Positions 34,863 to 40,530 of a stretch of 64,000 nt of DNA are shown here, piece after piece. The notes below the pieces were generated by a model. That model made no database searches and had not been told where the DNA came from. It worked only from the letters and a program-made list of their open reading frames with translations. The stretch covers positions 3,728,501 through 3,792,500 of the forward strand of contig NZ_JAHBRW010000001.1 of NCBI RefSeq assembly GCF_018398315.1, written 5' to 3'. The translations under genes were made by a program, and so were the position numbers. This DNA comes from Chelatococcus sp. YT9 (lineage in GTDB: Bacteria; Pseudomonadota; Alphaproteobacteria; Rhizobiales; Beijerinckiaceae). Position 1 is the stretch's first letter. Each line of letters starts with the position of its first letter.

Positions 34863-36260
34863 TCAGGCTGGAGCGCGGGCCTGCTTCTTCTTGCGCCAGG
34901 GCGCGTTTGCCGCCCAGTCGCCGGCCATGATGCAGCCGTAGGGGATCACCTCGTCGACGATCTCGGCGAGGCCATAGTGCTCGATCTGCCGGCGCACCGA
35001 CGCAGCGTTCTTGTAGGCGCTCGGTAGCTCCGAGATATCCGTCACACCCGAGAAGAAGCGCGCGTCGATACCCTGGGTCTCCGCGGCGAAGATCTCCGCG
35101 TCCGTCCGTCCCGCCTGAAGGCGCTTGTGCTGGCTACGCGAGAAGTTGCGACCCGCGCCATGAGGCGAAAATCCAAGGCCGTTCGGCGCATCCTTGCCAC
35201 GCACGATCAGTACAGGCTCCGCCATGTTGAGCGGAATGAGCGTCAGGTCCGTGGCGTCTTCGGCCCAGCCGGCGAAGGCCGGCGTCGCGCCCTTGCCGTG
35301 GTAGAACAGCCCGTCCGAGCGCCGGAAGACGAAGTTGTGCTCGTTCCAGAAGCGGTCCGAGACCTTCGCCGACAGCCGTTCGGCGGCCGCGTCGTGGATC
35401 AGCATATGGTTCGCTTTCGTCCAGGCCCGGATGGTCTGCAGAGCCTCCCAGTAGCGGTCGCCCTCCTCGGTATCGGCTGGAATCCAGGCGTTGTCGCGAT
35501 GGGTTTCCGGCGACGTCATCATGCGTACGGCATTGGCGATCATCATGCCCTTGCCATAGAGGCGAGCGCCCGGCGAACGCGAGCCGTGATGCGTCACCAG
35601 AGCCGTCTCGCCCGTCGACTTGATGGTTCCGACGAAGGCAAAATGGTTGCCGTCGCCCTGCGTGCCGAAATGCTCGATCGCCGCGCTGGTGATGTCGGCG
35701 AGCAGCGCGTTCGTGGTGAAGCGCTCCATCAGCGCCGGCTCCGGCCGGAACTGCTGGCCCCGCGGCCGCCCGCCCGGCCCGAAATGCGTCACCGCATGCA
35801 CGGTGTCGAGGAGAGCCTGCGGCGCGACGCCGGGATAGACCGAGATTGCCATGGAACAGCAGATATCAGCCGAGTGCATGCCGGGATGGATGGCTTCCGA
35901 CACCGCGATGCCGCCGACCGGGATCGTACCCATCGGGCCTGCCGGGCACGCATCCGGCATCACGGCGCCGGCCCGCACGACCGGAGTGCGCATCAGTTCC
36001 GTCATGCTTCGCGTCACCGCATCGACATTGGCCTGCTCGACCTCGTTCTCGGCATCGATGTTGATGTGGAACGGCACGGCGCCGGTGGGGCGCAAAGGGG
36101 TCGCGGGCGGCGGCTCGAACTGGCGCGCGGCCTCCACTGCGGCTGCAAATGAACCGCCGCTTTCCAGCACGGCGTTGCCCGCGGCGAGCGCCTTGCCAAA
36201 CCACTTGCCTTGCCGCATCCCGGCATCGATCAGGTCCTGTCCACTTAAAATCTCAGTCAT
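34863..36260 (-). CDS. rtcB: RNA-splicing ligase RtcB
   Basis: The 465-residue protein has the RtcB metal and GMP sites: HPGMHSADICCSM with the Mn-binding cysteine at about 134-135, GTQGDGNHFAFVG, HHGSRSPGARLYGKG and HGAGRNFSRSQ, whose histidine is guanylylated. RtcB joins a 2',3'-cyclic phosphate or 3'-phosphate end to a 5'-OH using GTP, repairing cleaved tRNA and other RNA. I chose the ATG at 36260; upstream sequence belongs to the last Y RNA. It is the distal protein gene of the rsr-Y RNA-rtcB unit under sigma-54 control. No rtcA cyclase is present. Confidence 0.94.
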   Translation of the reverse strand: MTEILSGQDLIDAGMRQGKWFGKALAAGNAVLESGGSFAAAVEAARQFEPPPATPLRPTGAVPFHINIDAENEVEQANVDAVTRSMTELMRTPVVRAGAVMPDACPAGPMGTIPVGGIAVSEAIHPGMHSADICCSMAISVYPGVAPQALLDTVHAVTHFGPGGRPRGQQFRPEPALMERFTTNALLADITSAAIEHFGTQGDGNHFAFVGTIKSTGETALVTHHGSRSPGARLYGKGMMIANAVRMMTSPETHRDNAWIPADTEEGDRYWEALQTIRAWTKANHMLIHDAAAERLSAKVSDRFWNEHNFVFRRSDGLFYHGKGATPAFAGWAEDATDLTLIPLNMAEPVLIVRGKDAPNGLGFSPHGAGRNFSRSQHKRLQAGRTDAEIFAAETQGIDARFFSGVTDISELPSAYKNAASVRRQIEHYGLAEIVDEVIPYGCIMAGDWAANAPWRKKKQARAPA

Positions 36261-36303: not shown

Positions 36304-36460
36304 TCAGGACGACAAGTCGTGAGCGCAACGTCTTTTTCCGCCACCGCATCCGGGCCTCCGGCAGTCCCGGACTTGGGAAGGGATCGAACCTTCACGCCTC
36401 ACGGCATCCGGTTATCCCGGATCGCGTCTTCCAATGGAGTGGCGCTCGCATTCGTCCTGA
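36304..36460 (-). ncRNA. Y RNA 5 (YrlA-type), tRNA-Leu-like mimic
   Basis: The ends pair perfectly over 9 bp (36452-36460 with 36304-36312) and contain the Ro-binding signature GACGAATG. A second helix (36439-36447 with 36321-36329, one mismatch) follows after a 4-base/8-base internal loop. Inside, in permuted order, are a class-II-like variable arm, a T arm (GAAGG-TTCGATC-CCTTC) and a capped acceptor-like stem (36366-36371 with 36349-36354, 11-base loop). A D-arm region GTGGCGGAAAAAGAC, like tRNA-Leu, comes last. It ends 43 bases before the rtcB start. Binding to Rsr is inferred. Confidence 0.82.
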
Positions 36461-36464
36461 TCGG

Positions 36465-36609
36465 CCGCTGGCGACAAGCGTGACGCAGGACCTCTTCCCT
36501 GAGCTACATCCGATCCCGAAGGACCGGGAGGGGTGACTTGAACACCCGACCTTCCGCCTCGAGCGAGGCGGACGCTCTGACCTGTAGTCCTGCAGGCATT
36601 CGCCGGCGG
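36465..36609 (-). ncRNA. Y RNA 4 (YrlA-type) with UUCG-capped acceptor mimic
   Basis: The terminal stem pairs 36600-36609 with 36465-36474 (nine of ten pairs) and carries GGCGAATG. The second helix pairs 36587-36594 with 36484-36491. Inside are an 8-bp hairpin (TCCGCCTC/GAGGCGGA) in variable-arm position, then a T arm GGGTG-TTCAAGT-CACCC. A 7-bp acceptor-like stem (36521-36527 with 36510-36516) is closed by a C(UUCG)G tetraloop, and a TAGCTCAGG D-arm start follows. The tetraloop means the acceptor end can never be free or aminoacylated. It starts four bases upstream of Y RNA 5. Confidence 0.85.
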
Positions 36610-36620
36610 AGTGGTCTTCG

Positions 36621-36753
36621 AAGCACGGCGACAAGGATGGATGAAACCAGGAATGTCCCGCTCATGCCAGAGAGCGCCTGCAAGGTGAGGAGTCGAACCC
36701 CACGGAGCATTCCGTCTATGCTGCTGTAGTTCCATCCGGCATTCGCCGTTCTT
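36621..36753 (-). ncRNA. Y RNA 3 (YrlA-type) with shortened acceptor mimic
   Basis: The terminal stem pairs ACGGCGA (minus strand, 36743-36749) with TCGCCGT (36625-36631) and carries GGCGAATG. The second helix is 9 bp (36729-36737 with 36639-36647, one G-U). Inside are a T arm TGGGG-TTCGACT-CCTCA, then a minimal CCT-TGC-AGG hairpin at 36677-36685 in place of the acceptor stem. A D arm GCTC-TCTGGCAT-GAGC follows. The acceptor mimic is reduced to three pairs, the most degenerate of the five. Confidence 0.82.
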
Positions 36754-36801
36754 TGAAGGTCTTTATTCCATTGATTACTGTCCAGAAGCGGTCCGGTTAA
36801 G

Positions 36802-36921
36802 GTCATGACGACAACGGTCGGCGAAACGCTTCTGCTCTACCACTGAGCTACGGGCCAAAGAGGAGGCCCGACGGGGATCGAACCCGCGACTTGATGTAGT
36901 TTCGCCTGCATTCGTCATGGC
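36802..36921 (-). ncRNA. Y RNA 2 (YrlA-type), compact tRNA mimic
   Basis: The terminal stem core CATGACGA/TCGTCATG (within 36912-36921 and 36802-36811) includes GACGAATG. The second helix is a perfect GGCGAAAC/GTTTCGCC (36899-36906 with 36820-36827). The same helix in Y RNA 1 is GATGGAAC/GTTTCATC, so several pairs have changed on both strands. Inside are a T arm GCGGG-TTCGATC-CCCGT directly stacked on a 6-bp acceptor-like stem CGGGCC/GGCCCG with an 8-base loop, then a TAGCTCAGTGGTAGAGC D arm. It has perfect tRNA spacing but in permuted order. Confidence 0.88.
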
Positions 36922-36953
36922 TGTTGCCTCGGATCGTCGTTGTTCATGAAGAA

Positions 36954-37106
36954 GGCATGACGACAAGGGATGATGAAACCTCTCCCACCGTAAGCGGGAA
37001 CCCGCTCTGACCACTGAGCTACGAGCCCGCAGTTGGTGGACCCGGCGGGATTCGAACCCGCGACCTGGAGGGGACAGCCTGTAGTTCCATCGGCATTCGT
37101 CATGCC
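36954..37106 (-). ncRNA. Y RNA 1 (YrlA-type) with CCA-bearing acceptor loop
   Basis: The ends pair perfectly over 10 bp (37097-37106 with 36954-36963) with the GACGAATG signature. The second helix is 8 bp (37084-37091 with 36972-36979). Inside, the T arm GCGGG-TTCGAAT-CCCGC abuts a 7-bp acceptor-like stem (37038-37044 with 37022-37028, two wobbles). The loop of that stem, ACCAACTGC, keeps an ACCA where a tRNA has its 3' end. A TAGCTCAGTGGTCAGAGC D arm follows, then a hairpin with loop CTTACGG resembling a valine anticodon loop. It lies 49 bases after rsr. Confidence 0.88.
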
Positions 37107-37155: not shown

Positions 37156-38715
37156 TTAGAGTTCTATGGCGTCGATCGCCTTCACCCAGTGATCCCGGTC
37201 TCGTCCGCTCTTCGCCATGGCGGCGATGAGTGTGAACACCTGGTCCGAGAAGCCGCCGACATTCAGGATGTCCGCTTGGCCCTTGGCCTGGGTCGTCGTG
37301 CTCGGCTGGATATCGATGCAGACGAGTTTCGCAGCCGGATTGAGGACCTTGATCCTGTTCCACGCCTGCATTGTCGCCGTGCCGTGGTGGCGATGGGGCA
37401 CCCCATCCACCCACGATTCGTTATCCGACACGAACACCACCAGATCGACCTTCGCCTTCTCTGCAGCTAGCTTTTGCAGCGGCGCGGAGCAGTTCGTTCC
37501 GCCACCGCCGATCGCCGCCAGCTTCGCCGCGTTGGTCATGACCGTGTCGCGCGGGTTGAGGTCGACGCCGACCACATCATGCTCGAACGGCAGCACGCGC
37601 GCGGTCCTGTTGGCCCGCAGGAGCGCCGCGGCAACGAGTGCCGCGACATCGACGCAGCGCACCGTCGTGGTGGCGCCCCGGCGATAGCCGGTCACGGGCG
37701 AGCACATCGAGCCCGACACATCAGGGCAGACCACTACGTTGCCCTCGATCTCCGGCACGTTGGCGAGCGCGATCTCCATCGCATCCTGCAACGCGTTCTT
37801 GACCGCGGTCGGCACGCTGCTGTCCGCCATGGTGAAGGCCACCATGAGCTGATACGGGAAGACCCGGGCGCGCCGGATCTCGGCCGCGTCGGCGAGCCGT
37901 CCGGCCAGCCGCTCCGTGAATCCCTCCACCTCGAACACGCCGTGGCGGGCGAAGGTGTTGAGGTTCTGGCGCAGCATCTGCCAGCCGGCTTTGTCAGCGA
38001 TCTCCACCCAATGCGCCTTCGACAGCGGCATCGCGGTGAGCATCTGGAACGGCACCGGTGGCACCGGCAGGGAGGGATCGCGCTTGAATGCCTCGAAGGC
38101 CTTCACCACCTCCGGCAGGGCCAGCACGTCATAGGGCTTGCCGATGAGATAGCCGTAGAGCGCCTCACGCGAGGCCGATGCCGGCTTCGGGTGAACCATC
38201 TTGATGATGTCGGCCAGCGACGGATCGTTGCCGACAGCGGCGCGCATGATCTCGATGTCGTCGGCCTGCTCCAGCCATCCCTGCACGAGGCGCTTCGGCC
38301 GGCTGCCGAGCGACTTGCGGCCCGTGACGCCGGAGCGCATGAGCTGCACGAAGTTGCGCAGCATCTTGCCGTTCCGGACGATGCGCGGGAAGGCCCGCGA
38401 GAACTCCGGCCCCGGCATCATCGACAACGCCGCCAGAAGCAGCGCCGGCATGTCCTTCATCAGGCCGCGCTCGTAGGCATGGATCGCCGCCTTGGCGACG
38501 AATTCCGGCTCAACTTGCCAGACGAGCTTCAGCACCTCGTCGAGCTGCTCGCGCGGCTCGGCGTAGAAGGTCGCGTTGAACGTCCCCGTCGCCGCCAGCT
38601 GCGCGAGTGCCTGATGGGGCGTGAGCGCATAGGCCAGCGCGCCTTCATGGTTGACGCTGTCGGTCTTCGGCAGCAGCTTTCCTGCGATCGTCGCAAACAC
38701 GGATTTGTTTGCCAT
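37156..38715 (-). CDS. rsr: Rsr, bacterial Ro60 (TROVE-vWA) RNA-binding protein
   Basis: The 519-residue protein has a TROVE domain of HEAT-like helices over about residues 15-340, starting with the LTPHQALAQLAATGTFNATFY region. A von Willebrand A domain follows with the MIDAS motif DVSGSMCS and FVSDNESWV. Ro60 proteins form a ring that binds misfolded RNA ends in the hole and Y RNA on the outside. With Y RNA they tether polynucleotide phosphorylase or gate substrates. I chose the ATG at 38715, preceded by AGAAGGAACGG. The five Y RNAs start 49 bases after its stop, and a sigma-54 promoter lies upstream. Confidence 0.94.
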   Translation of the reverse strand: MANKSVFATIAGKLLPKTDSVNHEGALAYALTPHQALAQLAATGTFNATFYAEPREQLDEVLKLVWQVEPEFVAKAAIHAYERGLMKDMPALLLAALSMMPGPEFSRAFPRIVRNGKMLRNFVQLMRSGVTGRKSLGSRPKRLVQGWLEQADDIEIMRAAVGNDPSLADIIKMVHPKPASASREALYGYLIGKPYDVLALPEVVKAFEAFKRDPSLPVPPVPFQMLTAMPLSKAHWVEIADKAGWQMLRQNLNTFARHGVFEVEGFTERLAGRLADAAEIRRARVFPYQLMVAFTMADSSVPTAVKNALQDAMEIALANVPEIEGNVVVCPDVSGSMCSPVTGYRRGATTTVRCVDVAALVAAALLRANRTARVLPFEHDVVGVDLNPRDTVMTNAAKLAAIGGGGTNCSAPLQKLAAEKAKVDLVVFVSDNESWVDGVPHRHHGTATMQAWNRIKVLNPAAKLVCIDIQPSTTTQAKGQADILNVGGFSDQVFTLIAAMAKSGRDRDHWVKAIDAIEL

Positions 38716-38747: not shown

Positions 38748-38763
38748 TTCAAGCAGCGTGCCA
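38748..38763 (-). promoter_or_regulatory. Sigma-54 promoter of rsr / Y RNA / rtcB
   Basis: The minus strand reads TGGCACG-CTGC-TTGAA, which matches the -24/-12 consensus TGGCACG-N4-TTGCW except at one -12 base. It lies about 33 bases upstream of the rsr ATG and opposite the divergent rtcR gene. That is where RtcR, a sigma-54 activator, should act from upstream sites within 38780-38920. Confidence 0.85.
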
Positions 38764-38922
38764 GTCCGGCGGTGATGGCGGGAAAAATGACCATTTTTTT
38801 AGTAAATGCTTGAAATTGTTATATTTCATTTTTTGAGCGCACGTGCGCAAGGCGGAGCGCGGTTGCTGGCGCGTTTCTCTGATGATATTGCTATCTAGCA
38901 TTTTAGAAATTTGGATAAGCGA

Positions 38923-40530
38923 ATGCGCCGCCGCATTGCCATCAGCGTCCTGGGAACCACACTCGACAGCGGCGGGCGCAAGGACCGGTGGAAACGCTGG
39001 CGGCCGACGGTTGCGCTCTGCCAGCAGCCCAACCTGTTTATCGACAGGCTGGAGCTCATCCACGGCGCCAAGCACCTGCCGCTCGCAACACAGATCACCC
39101 GAGACATCGAGCAGATTTCGCCCGCTACAGAGGTGAGGCTGCATGAGATCACCCTGCGTGATCCATGGGATTTCAGCGAGGTTTACACAAGCATGCGCGA
39201 TTTCGCGCACGGCTACAGCTTCGATCCCGAGCGAGAAGACTATCTCGTCAACATCACCACCGGCACCCATGTCGTGCAGATCTGCTGGTTCCTTCTGACG
39301 GAGGCGCGTTATATCCCCGGACGGTTGGTGCAGCTCTCGCCGCCGAGGAAAACCGAGGATCCCGGCGATTATTCCGGGACGCATTCGATCATCGATCTCG
39401 ACCTGTCGCGCTACGACGCGATTGCCACGCGCTTCGCGGCGGAGCGCGCGGAGGCGACGTCCTTCCTCAAGTCCGGCATCGCAACCCGCAATGCCACGTT
39501 TAACGAGATGATCGAGCAGATCGAGAAAGTTGCGATCCGCTCGCGCGCGCCGGTGCTTCTGACCGGGCCGACCGGGGCGGGCAAGTCACAACTGGCCAAG
39601 CGCATCTATGAACTGAAGCAGGCGCAGAGGCAGGTTTCAGGTGCTTTCGTCGAGATCAATTGCGCCACGCTACGGGGCGATCACGCGATGTCGACCCTCT
39701 TCGGACACGTCAAGGGCGCTTTCACGGGCGCGCAAGCGTCGCGCGCGGGGCTGATGAAGGCAGCCGACAAGGGCATGCTGTTCCTCGACGAGATCGGCGA
39801 ACTGGGCCTCGATGAGCAAGCCATGTGCCTGCGCGCGATTGAGGAGAAACGGTTCCTGCCGGTCGGTGCCGACAGCGATACCACCTCCGATTTCCAGCTG
39901 CTGGCAGGCACGAACCGGGATCTTGCCGTCAGCGTCAGGGAAGGGCGCTTTCGCGAGGATCTGTTCGCGCGGCTTAATCTGTGGACGTTTGAACTGCCGG
40001 CGCTCAAGGATCGTCGCGAAGATATTGAACCCAATCTCGATTTCGAGCTGAAGCGCTTCAGCGAGCGGGAAGGACTGAACGCCACCTTCAACAAGGAAGC
40101 GCGCGCGCTCTATCTTGCCTTCGCCATGAAGCCGGAAGCCGCCTGGCGCGCCAACTTTCGCGATCTCTCTGCATCGGTGACCCGCATGGCGACGCTCGCG
40201 CCACAGGCACGGATCAACGAGGATACGGTACACCAGGAAATTGATCGCCTCAGGCGGCAGTGGTCATCGGCGACTGACGGTGATGGATCAGAGGAGTTGC
40301 TCGTCAGCATACTCGGGCAGGAGCGGGCGGCTGAGCTAGATCTCTTCGACCGGGCACAGCTCGCAACCGTCATCAAGGCCTGTCGCGGCAGCGCCTCGAT
40401 CAGCGCGGCCGGGCGGCAGCTGTTCGCCGTATCGCGACTGCAGAAATCCACCGGCAATGATGCGGACAGGCTGAGAAAATACCTGCTGAAATACAATCTC
40501 ACATTCGAGGATGCCAGCCGGCCGCACTGA
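38923..40530 (+). CDS. rtcR: RtcR, sigma-54-dependent activator of RNA repair
   Basis: The 535-residue protein has an N-terminal CARF-like sensor domain (about 1-180, ISVLGTTLDSG at the start). A sigma-54 AAA+ domain follows, with Walker A GPTGAGKS (215-222) and the sigma-54-contact GAFTGA (265-270), then a C-terminal Fis-like helix-turn-helix. Known RtcR proteins sense RNA-damage products such as cleaved tRNA with a cyclic phosphate end and then activate the rsr/rtc promoter. I chose the ATG at 38923 after GGATAAGCG; a TTG lies four codons earlier. It is divergent from rsr. Confidence 0.93.
   Translation: MRRRIAISVLGTTLDSGGRKDRWKRWRPTVALCQQPNLFIDRLELIHGAKHLPLATQITRDIEQISPATEVRLHEITLRDPWDFSEVYTSMRDFAHGYSFDPEREDYLVNITTGTHVVQICWFLLTEARYIPGRLVQLSPPRKTEDPGDYSGTHSIIDLDLSRYDAIATRFAAERAEATSFLKSGIATRNATFNEMIEQIEKVAIRSRAPVLLTGPTGAGKSQLAKRIYELKQAQRQVSGAFVEINCATLRGDHAMSTLFGHVKGAFTGAQASRAGLMKAADKGMLFLDEIGELGLDEQAMCLRAIEEKRFLPVGADSDTTSDFQLLAGTNRDLAVSVREGRFREDLFARLNLWTFELPALKDRREDIEPNLDFELKRFSEREGLNATFNKEARALYLAFAMKPEAAWRANFRDLSASVTRMATLAPQARINEDTVHQEIDRLRRQWSSATDGDGSEELLVSILGQERAAELDLFDRAQLATVIKACRGSASISAAGRQLFAVSRLQKSTGNDADRLRKYLLKYNLTFEDASRPH

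What the first reader, a model, noticed from the sequence alone, without database searches (positions are those of the whole stretch)
36304..37106. Tandem array of five Y RNAs that are permuted tRNA mimics, between rsr and rtcB
Seen: about 800 non-coding bases contain five units on the rsr/rtcB strand. Each is closed by a 7-10 bp end-to-end stem with G(A/G)CGAATG on one strand and CTTGTCG(T/C)C or a close variant on the other. A second helix lies across a constant internal loop. Inside are a TTCRANY T arm, an acceptor-like stem capped by a loop, and a D arm, in that order. Both long-range helices covary between copies (GATGGAAC/GTTTCATC against GGCGAAAC/GTTTCGCC; CATGACGA/TCGTCATG against ACGGCGA/TCGCCGT). 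Known: bacterial Y RNAs (YrlA) bind Rsr through GNCGAAN0-1G and contain a tRNA-like domain. Inference: five copies in one operon would give Rsr a panel of tRNA mimics. I cannot tell whether such arrays have been catalogued.
Basis: partly seen in the sequence, partly recalled or inferred. Interest (0 to 1): 0.93.

Follow-up and report, generated by a model that had tools for sequence, protein, structure and literature searches.

The report
Array of differently opened tRNA-mimic Y RNAs
Between two RNA-repair genes this bacterium encodes five small RNAs that share one protein-binding handle but carry different heads, four of them tRNA look-alikes cut open at different places; related bacteria keep such sets in much the same order, and the RNA family database recognised only the classic kind in the loci scanned.

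Summary
The five units are real: 36304-37106, minus strand, between rsr and rtcB, behind divergent rtcR. The same unit finder gives 208 units (a lower bound) in 52 rsr loci, against 1 on the reverse strands and 2 inside rsr genes. All five share a Y-RNA handle: G(A/G)CGAATG...TTGTCG(T/C)C stem plus a second helix.

The heads differ. U5 and U4 are YrlA-type tRNA mimics opened at the anticodon arm; U4 is a full Rfam YrlA hit (82 bits). U3 has a T arm plus a conserved hairpin and is no tRNA mimic. U2 is a complete cloverleaf opened in the D loop, with compensatory D-stem changes in two lineages and with anticodon and acceptor arms capped. U1 is a D-loop-opened class II mimic; all 14 such units match tRNA-Leu best. 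A congener (L137) has the same A-A-C-B-D set; Mesorhizobium-like loci keep this order with gains and losses.

Circular permutation of YrlA and Y-RNA pairs are known. D-loop-opened and class II Y RNAs, encoded CCA in type A, and ordered arrays of up to seven I did not find in Rfam 15 or the papers searched. Best guess: Rsr-tethered adaptors or decoys that show the tRNA elbow without its working ends; the mechanism is inferred.

The parts
36304..36460 (-). Unit U1 (type D): Y RNA with a class II, tRNA-Leu-like head opened in the D loop; variable arm GCC(GUGA)GGC, capped acceptor arm
   Evidence: Best four host tRNAs all Leu; all 14 type D units, U1 included, best match tRNA-Leu; RNAalifold on these 14 gives a D-loop-opened class II cloverleaf unaided, D-stem pairs kept in 13-14 of 14 without variation. 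No Rfam match up to E 1. U1's own acceptor arm has mismatches and an extra extension.
36470..36604 (-). Unit U2 (type B): Y RNA with a complete class I cloverleaf opened in the D loop; anticodon arm and acceptor arm both capped by short loops
   Evidence: D stem: 70 of 72 cells paired on the MAFFT columns (97.2%), 72 of 72 when the strands are placed by motif, in 18 units; double changes in two lineages; RNAalifold finds the same fold unaided. Rfam YrlA only 19.3 bits, cut-off 69.
36625..36749 (-). Unit U3 (type C): Y RNA whose head is a T arm plus a GCGCUC-UCUGGCA-UGAGCG hairpin inside a covarying helix; no cloverleaf
   Evidence: Alignment A3 of 13; inner helix GGAAUG/CAUUCC supported by re-pairing test over 27 units, 0 of 2000. 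Rfam YrlA 23.9 bits.
36804..36919 (-). Unit U4 (type A): classic YrlA, tRNA-like head opened at the anticodon arm, no encoded CCA
   Evidence: Rfam RF02553 82 bits, cut-off 69, E 1.8e-17.
36954..37106 (-). Unit U5 (type A): YrlA-type head opened at the anticodon arm; acceptor loop contains encoded ACCA; G3:U70 and A73; extra hairpin on the 3' side
   Evidence: Rfam RF02553 49.8 bits over the full model, below cut-off; acceptor table; alignment A4.
37156..38715 (-). rsr (Ro60 orthologue, divergent)
   Evidence: Pfam vWA_Ro60 66.4 bits and TROVE 27.8 bits; best solved structure 2nvo, 'Ro sixty-related protein, RSR', E 1.8e-21. NCBIfam Rsr model only 78 bits against a cut-off of 900. Start at ATG 38715 chosen by eye.
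34863..36260 (-). rtcB (RNA ligase RtcB family, divergent)
   Evidence: Pfam PF01139 116.9 bits; NCBIfam RtcB-family models below their cut-offs; ATG at 36260.
38911..40530 (+). rtcR, divergent sigma54 activator
   Evidence: NCBIfam NF038308 820 bits, cut-off 650.
38748..38763 (-). sigma54 (-24/-12)-like promoter TGGCAC-N5-TTGAA upstream of rsr
   Evidence: One mismatch to TGGCA-N6-TTGCW (consensus recalled); 4 matches in the window where 7.1 are expected by chance, so only its position supports it.

Best explanation
What it is (about 0.95): the spacer of an RtcR/sigma54-type RNA-repair operon encodes five Y RNAs, probably in one transcript. Each has the same Rsr-binding handle (closing stem, constant internal loop, second helix) but a different head: two tRNA mimics opened at the anticodon arm (U5, U4), one T-arm/hairpin head (U3), and two cloverleafs opened in the D loop, one class I (U2) and one class II tRNA-Leu-like (U1). 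How it works (inferred, about 0.4): when tRNAs are cut, RtcR switches the operon on; the Y RNAs are released from the transcript and held by Rsr. The tRNA-like heads show the tRNA elbow (D/T-loop contacts) but lack working ends: the acceptor end is a closed loop, and the anticodon is removed, unpaired or capped. They would therefore bind proteins that recognise tRNA bodies (anticodon nucleases, PNPase or other tRNA-handling enzymes) without being charged, decoded or cut, either as decoys or to bring those proteins to RNA held by Rsr. Different heads would serve different partners or tRNA classes.
For: Shown by sequence: five units with a common handle; operon rtcR / rsr-array-rtcB; the same layout on four Rhizobium plasmids (RtcB named in two of them, 'hypothetical protein' in that place in the other two). 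No sigma70-promoter-like or terminator-like site inside the array. Type B D stem paired in 70 of 72 alignment cells, with double changes in two lineages. Over 18 aligned type B units A14, G18, G19, A21, C48, U55 and C56 are invariant and U8, G15 and A58 are at 90% or more (tRNA numbering mine). Type D best matches Leu in 14 of 14 with a class II fold. Class order: by the finder A before B in 34 of 34 loci with both, C before B in 23 of 23, D last in 14 of 14; with three type B units that the finder missed A before B is 36 of 37 and C before B 24 of 24. From papers: RtcR binds 5' tRNA fragments with 2',3'-cyclic phosphate, and YrlA, not cut by the anticodon nuclease, may act as its competitive inhibitor (PMC7790460, passages); YrlA is a substrate of TruB and DusA and links Rsr to PNPase (PMC8394870, passages).
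Against: No expression, binding or nuclease data for any of these units. U3 is not a tRNA mimic, so tRNA decoying cannot be the whole story. Types A and B are not isotype-specific by sequence, which weakens 'one head per tRNA'. In 15 of 52 loci no type B unit was found (18 lacked one by the finder, 3 of these have one at 90 bits or more by model R1), so the full set is not needed everywhere. In L026 a type B unit precedes the type A unit, against the usual order. Rotation did not raise U1's tRNA score (47.5 both ways) and raised U2's only from 39.25 to 42.0; their permutation rests on structure, not on that test. The type D D-stem does not vary, so it has no covariation support of its own.
Confidence: 0.5

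Rival explanations
1. Decay adaptors. The heads are docking modules for PNPase or other RNases (as in RYPER), and each Y RNA tunes Rsr/PNPase towards a class of structured RNA. Likeness to tRNA only gives a stable, recognised fold.
For: RYPER link of Rsr, Y RNA and PNPase in D. radiodurans and binding of PNPase by Salmonella Rsr and YrlA (PMC7790460, PMC8394870, PMC9879122, passages). Type C and short type E heads recur without a cloverleaf.
Against: Does not explain why type D keeps tRNA-Leu likeness down to the variable arm, or why elbow nucleotides are invariant in the type B alignment.
Confidence: 0.25
2. Processed, tRNA-like ends. Type A units with encoded NCCA are cut in the acceptor loop by RNase P and trimmed to CCA, giving two-piece tRNA mimics with a real acceptor end; those with G3:U70 and A73 could be charged with alanine, as tmRNA is.
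For: CCA at positions 74-76 in 50 of the 64 type A units (of 72 examined) whose loop has 4 or more nt. Wobble pairs at acceptor positions 1 to 7: 12, 2, 20, 1, 3, 1, 0 of 72. G3:U70 in 16 of 72, of which A73 in 14 (14/16 against 7/48, Fisher p 2e-7, related sequences not corrected for). U5 has all three features (all).
Against: U4, U2 and U1 lack NCCA; CCA could be a relic of a tandem tRNA origin; G3:U70 is not linked to CCA (p 0.74). RNase P action untested. Alanine identity of G3:U70 and A73 is recalled, not from a call.
Confidence: 0.1
3. Simple gene dosage: tandem copies of one YrlA that have drifted.
For: Tandem layout and a shared handle.
Against: The classes differ in topology and recur in much the same order across genera and families. 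No phylogeny of units was made.
Confidence: 0.05
4. Decaying tRNA gene fragments, no function.
For: Type A reads like 3' half-CCA-short spacer-5' half of tandem tRNAs; tRNA-Pro genes sit inside or beside the arrays of three relatives (L034, L035, L041). Some loci hold shortened units.
Against: Compensatory changes in several helices of types A, B and C, recurring classes and order.
Confidence: 0.02

Closest known systems
YrlA, Rfam RF02553 (Salmonella YrlA, structure 6CU1)
   Same: Handle motif, position next to rsr, tRNA-like head circularly permuted with the Y stem at the anticodon arm (permutation of 6CU1 shown in PMC11472068, passages). U4 is a member by score; U5 matches the full model below cut-off.
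   Different: U2 and U1 are opened in the D loop and keep (capped) anticodon arms; U1 is class II; U3 has no cloverleaf; U5 and 50 of 64 type A units with room for it encode CCA in the acceptor loop. In the scanned relatives all 28 YrlA hits over cut-off fall on type A units (mapped), and the 3 further ones also lie on type A-like units.
Salmonella rsr-yrlBA-rtcBA RNA-repair operon
   Same: rtcR divergent, sigma54-type promoter, rsr then Y RNAs then rtcB (PMC7790460, PMC9879122, passages).
   Different: Two Y RNAs there, five here and up to seven in relatives. I did not look for rtcA here.
Circularly permuted tRNA genes
   Same: tRNA parts in circularly permuted order.
   Different: Those transcripts are circularised and cleaved back to standard tRNA (PMC10085705, passage). 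Here a Y stem sits in the opening, and U2 and U1 have capped acceptor arms and no 7-nt anticodon loop.
tmRNA
   Same: U5 and several relatives have G3:U70, A73 and CCA, the alanine identity set (recalled).
   Different: Acceptor end closed in a loop, Y handle instead. Rfam tmRNA (24.4 bits) and permuted tmRNA (26.6 bits) match over U5 below their cut-offs of 47. I did not look for a tag reading frame.

Membership tests
YrlA (RF02553) | Covariance-model score at or above 69 bits: U4 | tested here: met
   82 bits.
YrlA (RF02553) | Covariance-model score at or above 69 bits: U5, U3, U2, U1 | tested here: not met
   49.8, 23.9, 19.3 bits, and no U1 match up to E 1.
YrlA (RF02553) | tRNA-like head in the order T arm, acceptor, D arm: U5, U4 | tested here: met
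YrlA (RF02553) | tRNA-like head in the order T arm, acceptor, D arm: U3, U2, U1 | tested here: not met
   U2 and U1 opened in the D loop; U3 no cloverleaf.
Bacterial Y RNA (broad sense) | Encoded next to a Ro60/Rsr gene | tested here: met
   The five lie 50-852 nt after rsr; Rsr by Pfam and 2nvo.
   All five carry GACGAATG or GGCGAATG in a closing stem of 5-10 bp.
Bacterial Y RNA (broad sense) | Bound by Rsr in the cell | not testable with these tools
   Needs pull-down.
tRNA gene | Recognised cloverleaf in normal order | tested here: not met
   ARAGORN finds no tRNA in the window.
Permuted tRNA gene | Processed to a mature decoding tRNA | not testable with these tools
   Against: of 18 type B units 8 have 4-nt loops on the anticodon arm and one has a 7-nt loop, without U33; 1 of 15 type B units examined has CCA at 74-76.

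The most novel reading that the evidence does not exclude
One Rsr handle has been grafted onto tRNA bodies at different points, giving a kit of permuted tRNA mimics (anticodon-opened, D-loop-opened class I, D-loop-opened class II Leu). The CCA-bearing members with G3:U70 and A73 are cut in the acceptor loop by RNase P and charged with alanine while held by Rsr: a second tmRNA-like, chargeable RNA tied to tRNA damage repair.
Probability: 0.08. Interest if true: 0.95.

Novelty: new variant of a known kind. Interest (0 to 1): 0.75.

Why it matters
In the best-studied RNA-repair operon (Salmonella) there are two Y RNAs, and the solved tRNA-like design is opened at the anticodon. Here one protein gene is followed by an ordered set of five, in relatives up to seven, and the same handle is attached to tRNA bodies at different points. 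That gives natural controls for what the tRNA-like head does: same handle, same operon, different opening point, class and ends. It makes the open question of what Rsr and Y RNAs do in RNA repair directly testable by deleting or swapping single units, in named rhizobia that carry the array. In the loci scanned Rfam recognised only the YrlA type; the D-loop-opened, class II and T-arm types could be added as new families.

Tried and rejected
Pseudoknot in type C: a short crossing helix looked plausible by eye, but re-pairing between sequences gave as much pairing (532 of 2000 at least as high); dropped. A valine anticodon loop in U5 (CUUACGG): in several related type A units the extra hairpin at that place ends in GCAA, so it is not kept; dropped. 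Isotype calls for types A and B: best host matches are scattered (Arg 38, Met 17 and others of 70 type A; Pro 13, Asp 11, Arg 11 and others of 51 type B), so no isotype is claimed. Rotation against host tRNAs was first run with unequal cut grids and repeated with equal grids and 100 shuffles: U5 z 9.3, U4 10.1, U2 4.5, U1 7.3, U3 3.0. Weak R1 hits over whole genomes (about 30-38 bits, often model positions 27-111) may be tandem ordinary tRNA genes; I did not check them one by one, and outside rsr loci I use only hits of 90 bits or more. Phages: no match to the array and no exact match of one type B pattern in viral contigs.

Counting notes: eight repeat loci (L014-L016, L020-L022, L043, L151) were dropped before the count of 52. 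The finder misses units: model R1 on the 18 loci without a type B call found three at 90 bits or more (L009, L026, L032) and further weaker units, for instance four more in L040, so 208 is a lower bound. Classes were assigned by text patterns plus hand relabelling of L137_3, L144_3, L147_2, L137_5, L146_6 and the E class; two C calls (L027_5, L031_2) are wrong, so C is 28 of 208, not 30, and 27 are unclassed. L029_2 is a merged unit. Some tables are anchored on motifs and so partly hold by construction: the D strands and the elbow positions; I therefore lean on the free alignments. The structure counted was derived from the same 18 sequences. One search covers 15 of 18 type B units (three Labrys units with 6-nt T loops left out). 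Alignment A4 holds 32 of 41 type A units. The type C test used 27 of 28 units (L145_3 failed the parser). Rfam was run on the window, 38 of the other 51 loci and 7 further loci. Sequences within a class are related, so counts are not independent events.

Full report
Setting. The window lies in a 6.74 Mb genome, by its named relatives a Hyphomicrobiales bacterium (Bosea, Boseaceae, Phreatobacter, Labrys, Mesorhizobium). On the minus strand lie rsr (37156-38715), the array (36304-37106) and rtcB (34863-36260); rtcR (38911-40530) is divergent. Rsr and RtcB are divergent: both pass Pfam's cut-offs but score far below NCBIfam's. A sigma54-like site with one mismatch sits just upstream of rsr, a match that chance would also give somewhere in 64 kb. 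No sigma70-promoter-like or terminator-like site lies inside the array. ARAGORN finds no tRNA in the window.

The units. Five units share a closing stem with G(A/G)CGAATG on one strand and TTGTCG(T/C)C on the other, a CUACA or CUCCA internal-loop strand and a second helix. In 1000 dinucleotide shuffles of the region the finder gave 0 units 973 times and 1 unit 27 times; the real region gives 5. Rfam: U4 82 bits, over the YrlA cut-off of 69; U5 49.8, U3 23.9, U2 19.3 below it.

Relatives. rsr homologues came from genome contigs (9 loci), from 29 of 397 genomes of the order, 2 of 4 of the genus and 21 of 146 of a second genus, which by identical array coordinates holds the named Mesorhizobium sp. 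YC-39. These sets overlap. After dropping repeats, 52 loci hold 208 units by the finder, 1 to 7 per locus; the same finder gives 1 on the reverse strands and 2 inside rsr genes. The finder misses some units. Of 56 plasmid records with a match I looked at four Rhizobium plasmids: each has rsr and a Y-RNA array next to it. The array interval has no listed gene in three and a small hypothetical ORF in the fourth; PLSDB lists no RNA genes.

Type A (U5, U4). Order T arm, acceptor, D arm; opened at the anticodon arm. RNAalifold on 32 units gives this fold, 17 of 31 pairs with double changes. Of 72 type A units, 64 have an acceptor loop of 4 or more nt, and 50 of these have CCA at positions 74-76; 16 of 72 have G3:U70, 14 of those with A73. 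In 50 units with room for it, the strand where positions 32-38 of a tRNA would lie has U33 in 40 and the pattern YUNNNR in 28, against at most 4 at offsets of 1 to 4 nt; U at the second position alone is also common at offsets +2 and +3 (39 and 32), and 16 of the 50 heptamers are only two sequences. U4 lacks this stretch; U5 has it shortened.

Type B (U2). Opened in the D loop: the unit starts with G18 G19 ... A21 and the 3' D strand, runs through anticodon arm, variable loop, T arm and acceptor hairpin, and ends with U8 A9, the 5' D strand, A14, G15. The D stem is GAGC/GCTC in most units, GCGC/GCGC in three of one lineage and GAAC/GTTC in three Labrys units; on the free alignment 70 of 72 cells pair. 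RNAalifold finds this fold unaided. For the structure as stated 92.4% of cells pair, against 81.8% in column shuffles and at most 56.3% when partners are slid. In the 18-unit alignment A14, G18, G19, A21, C48, U55 and C56 are invariant. On the anticodon arm 8 of 18 units have a 4-nt loop, the rest 5-14 nt, one of 7 nt without U33.

Type B elsewhere. Model R1 gives 17 hits of 90 bits or more in 15 of 397 genomes of the order, each within 0.8 kb downstream of rsr. Thirteen of the 15 supplied the model. Independent of it are G247, G385, L009 (Bosea sp. BK604, 108 bits), G438 of another order (90.2 bits; rsr alongside) and the four Rhizobium plasmids (108.5-119.3 bits). In the class sample of 385 genomes, only the window and G438 reach 90 bits.

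Type D (U1). Fourteen units, all best matched by tRNA-Leu among 45 host tRNAs. RNAalifold gives closing stem, second helix, D stem, anticodon stem, variable arm, T arm and acceptor stem, 7 of 39 pairs with double changes; it also pairs CUAC with GUAG in the internal loop. The D stem itself does not vary, so for type D the opening point rests on order and fold, not on covariation. Each type D unit is the last of its array (14 of 14). The congener G778 (L137) has the same five classes in the same order; the other loci with type D read ACBBD, AACBE?D, ACBEBD, ABD, ACBD, AACBBD, AACBED, AACBEBD or AABBD.

Order. By the finder A precedes B in 34 of 34 and C precedes B in 23 of 23 loci that hold both. 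With the three type B units it missed, C precedes B in 24 of 24 and A precedes B in 36 of 37; in L026 B comes first.

Type C (U3). T arm with UUCGACU loop, a hairpin CGCUC-UCUGGCA-GAGCG that is conserved in sequence in many units, and an outer helix supported by re-pairing (136 observed, shuffled mean 118.7, 0 of 2000, 27 units). Not a cloverleaf.

Known and new. Circular permutation of YrlA relative to tRNA is in print (PMC11472068, passages), as are a Y-RNA pair in Salmonella and the suggestion that YrlA may compete with an anticodon nuclease (PMC7790460, passages). Chen et al. 2014, Sim and Wolin 2018 and Wang et al. 2018 were not held. From recall, Chen et al. report Y RNAs near Ro60 in many bacteria with at least one tRNA-like Y RNA per species, so multi-copy loci as such may be catalogued there. 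I saw no mention of D-loop-opened or class II Y RNAs in the listings of searches or in the passages I read; these cover open-licence papers only. In the scanned loci the YrlA hits over cut-off fall on type A units.

Reading. The conserved handle, the different heads in a recurring order, and the loss of both working ends while the elbow is kept fit Rsr-held adaptors or decoys for tRNA-binding proteins during tRNA damage. Identity is well supported; the mechanism is inference.

Noticed in passing
L034 954-1031 (-); L035 3535-3612; L041 3221-3295: tRNA-Pro(tgg) genes sit inside or beside the Y RNA arrays of three relatives (Rfam, ARAGORN), a possible source of new heads. A second Rfam tRNA hit in L035 (3619-3691, 38.2 bits) and one in L029 over a Y unit (30.0 bits) are not confirmed by ARAGORN.
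   Followed up: partly
L009, 217-289 nt after rsr: In Bosea sp. BK604 the second unit keeps the handle and a short hairpin but lacks the tRNA-like head. L027 and L028 have units with inner parts of only 57 nt.
   Followed up: no
L017 734-832 (-) and 16 similar units: Type E: short units with a T arm and one hairpin, no D arm, often between type B copies in Mesorhizobium-like arrays.
   Followed up: partly
L157 (G438), unit 1; L036_1: In another order and in L036 a longer unit looks like a further D-loop-opened form with an extra 5' insert.
   Followed up: no
L161 8221-8509: On the Rhizobium sp. CIAT894 plasmid a gene annotated RNA ligase lies just beyond rtcR.
   Followed up: no
L040 3281-3843: Model R1 finds four further handle-bearing units after the single one the finder reported, so some arrays are longer than counted.
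   Followed up: no
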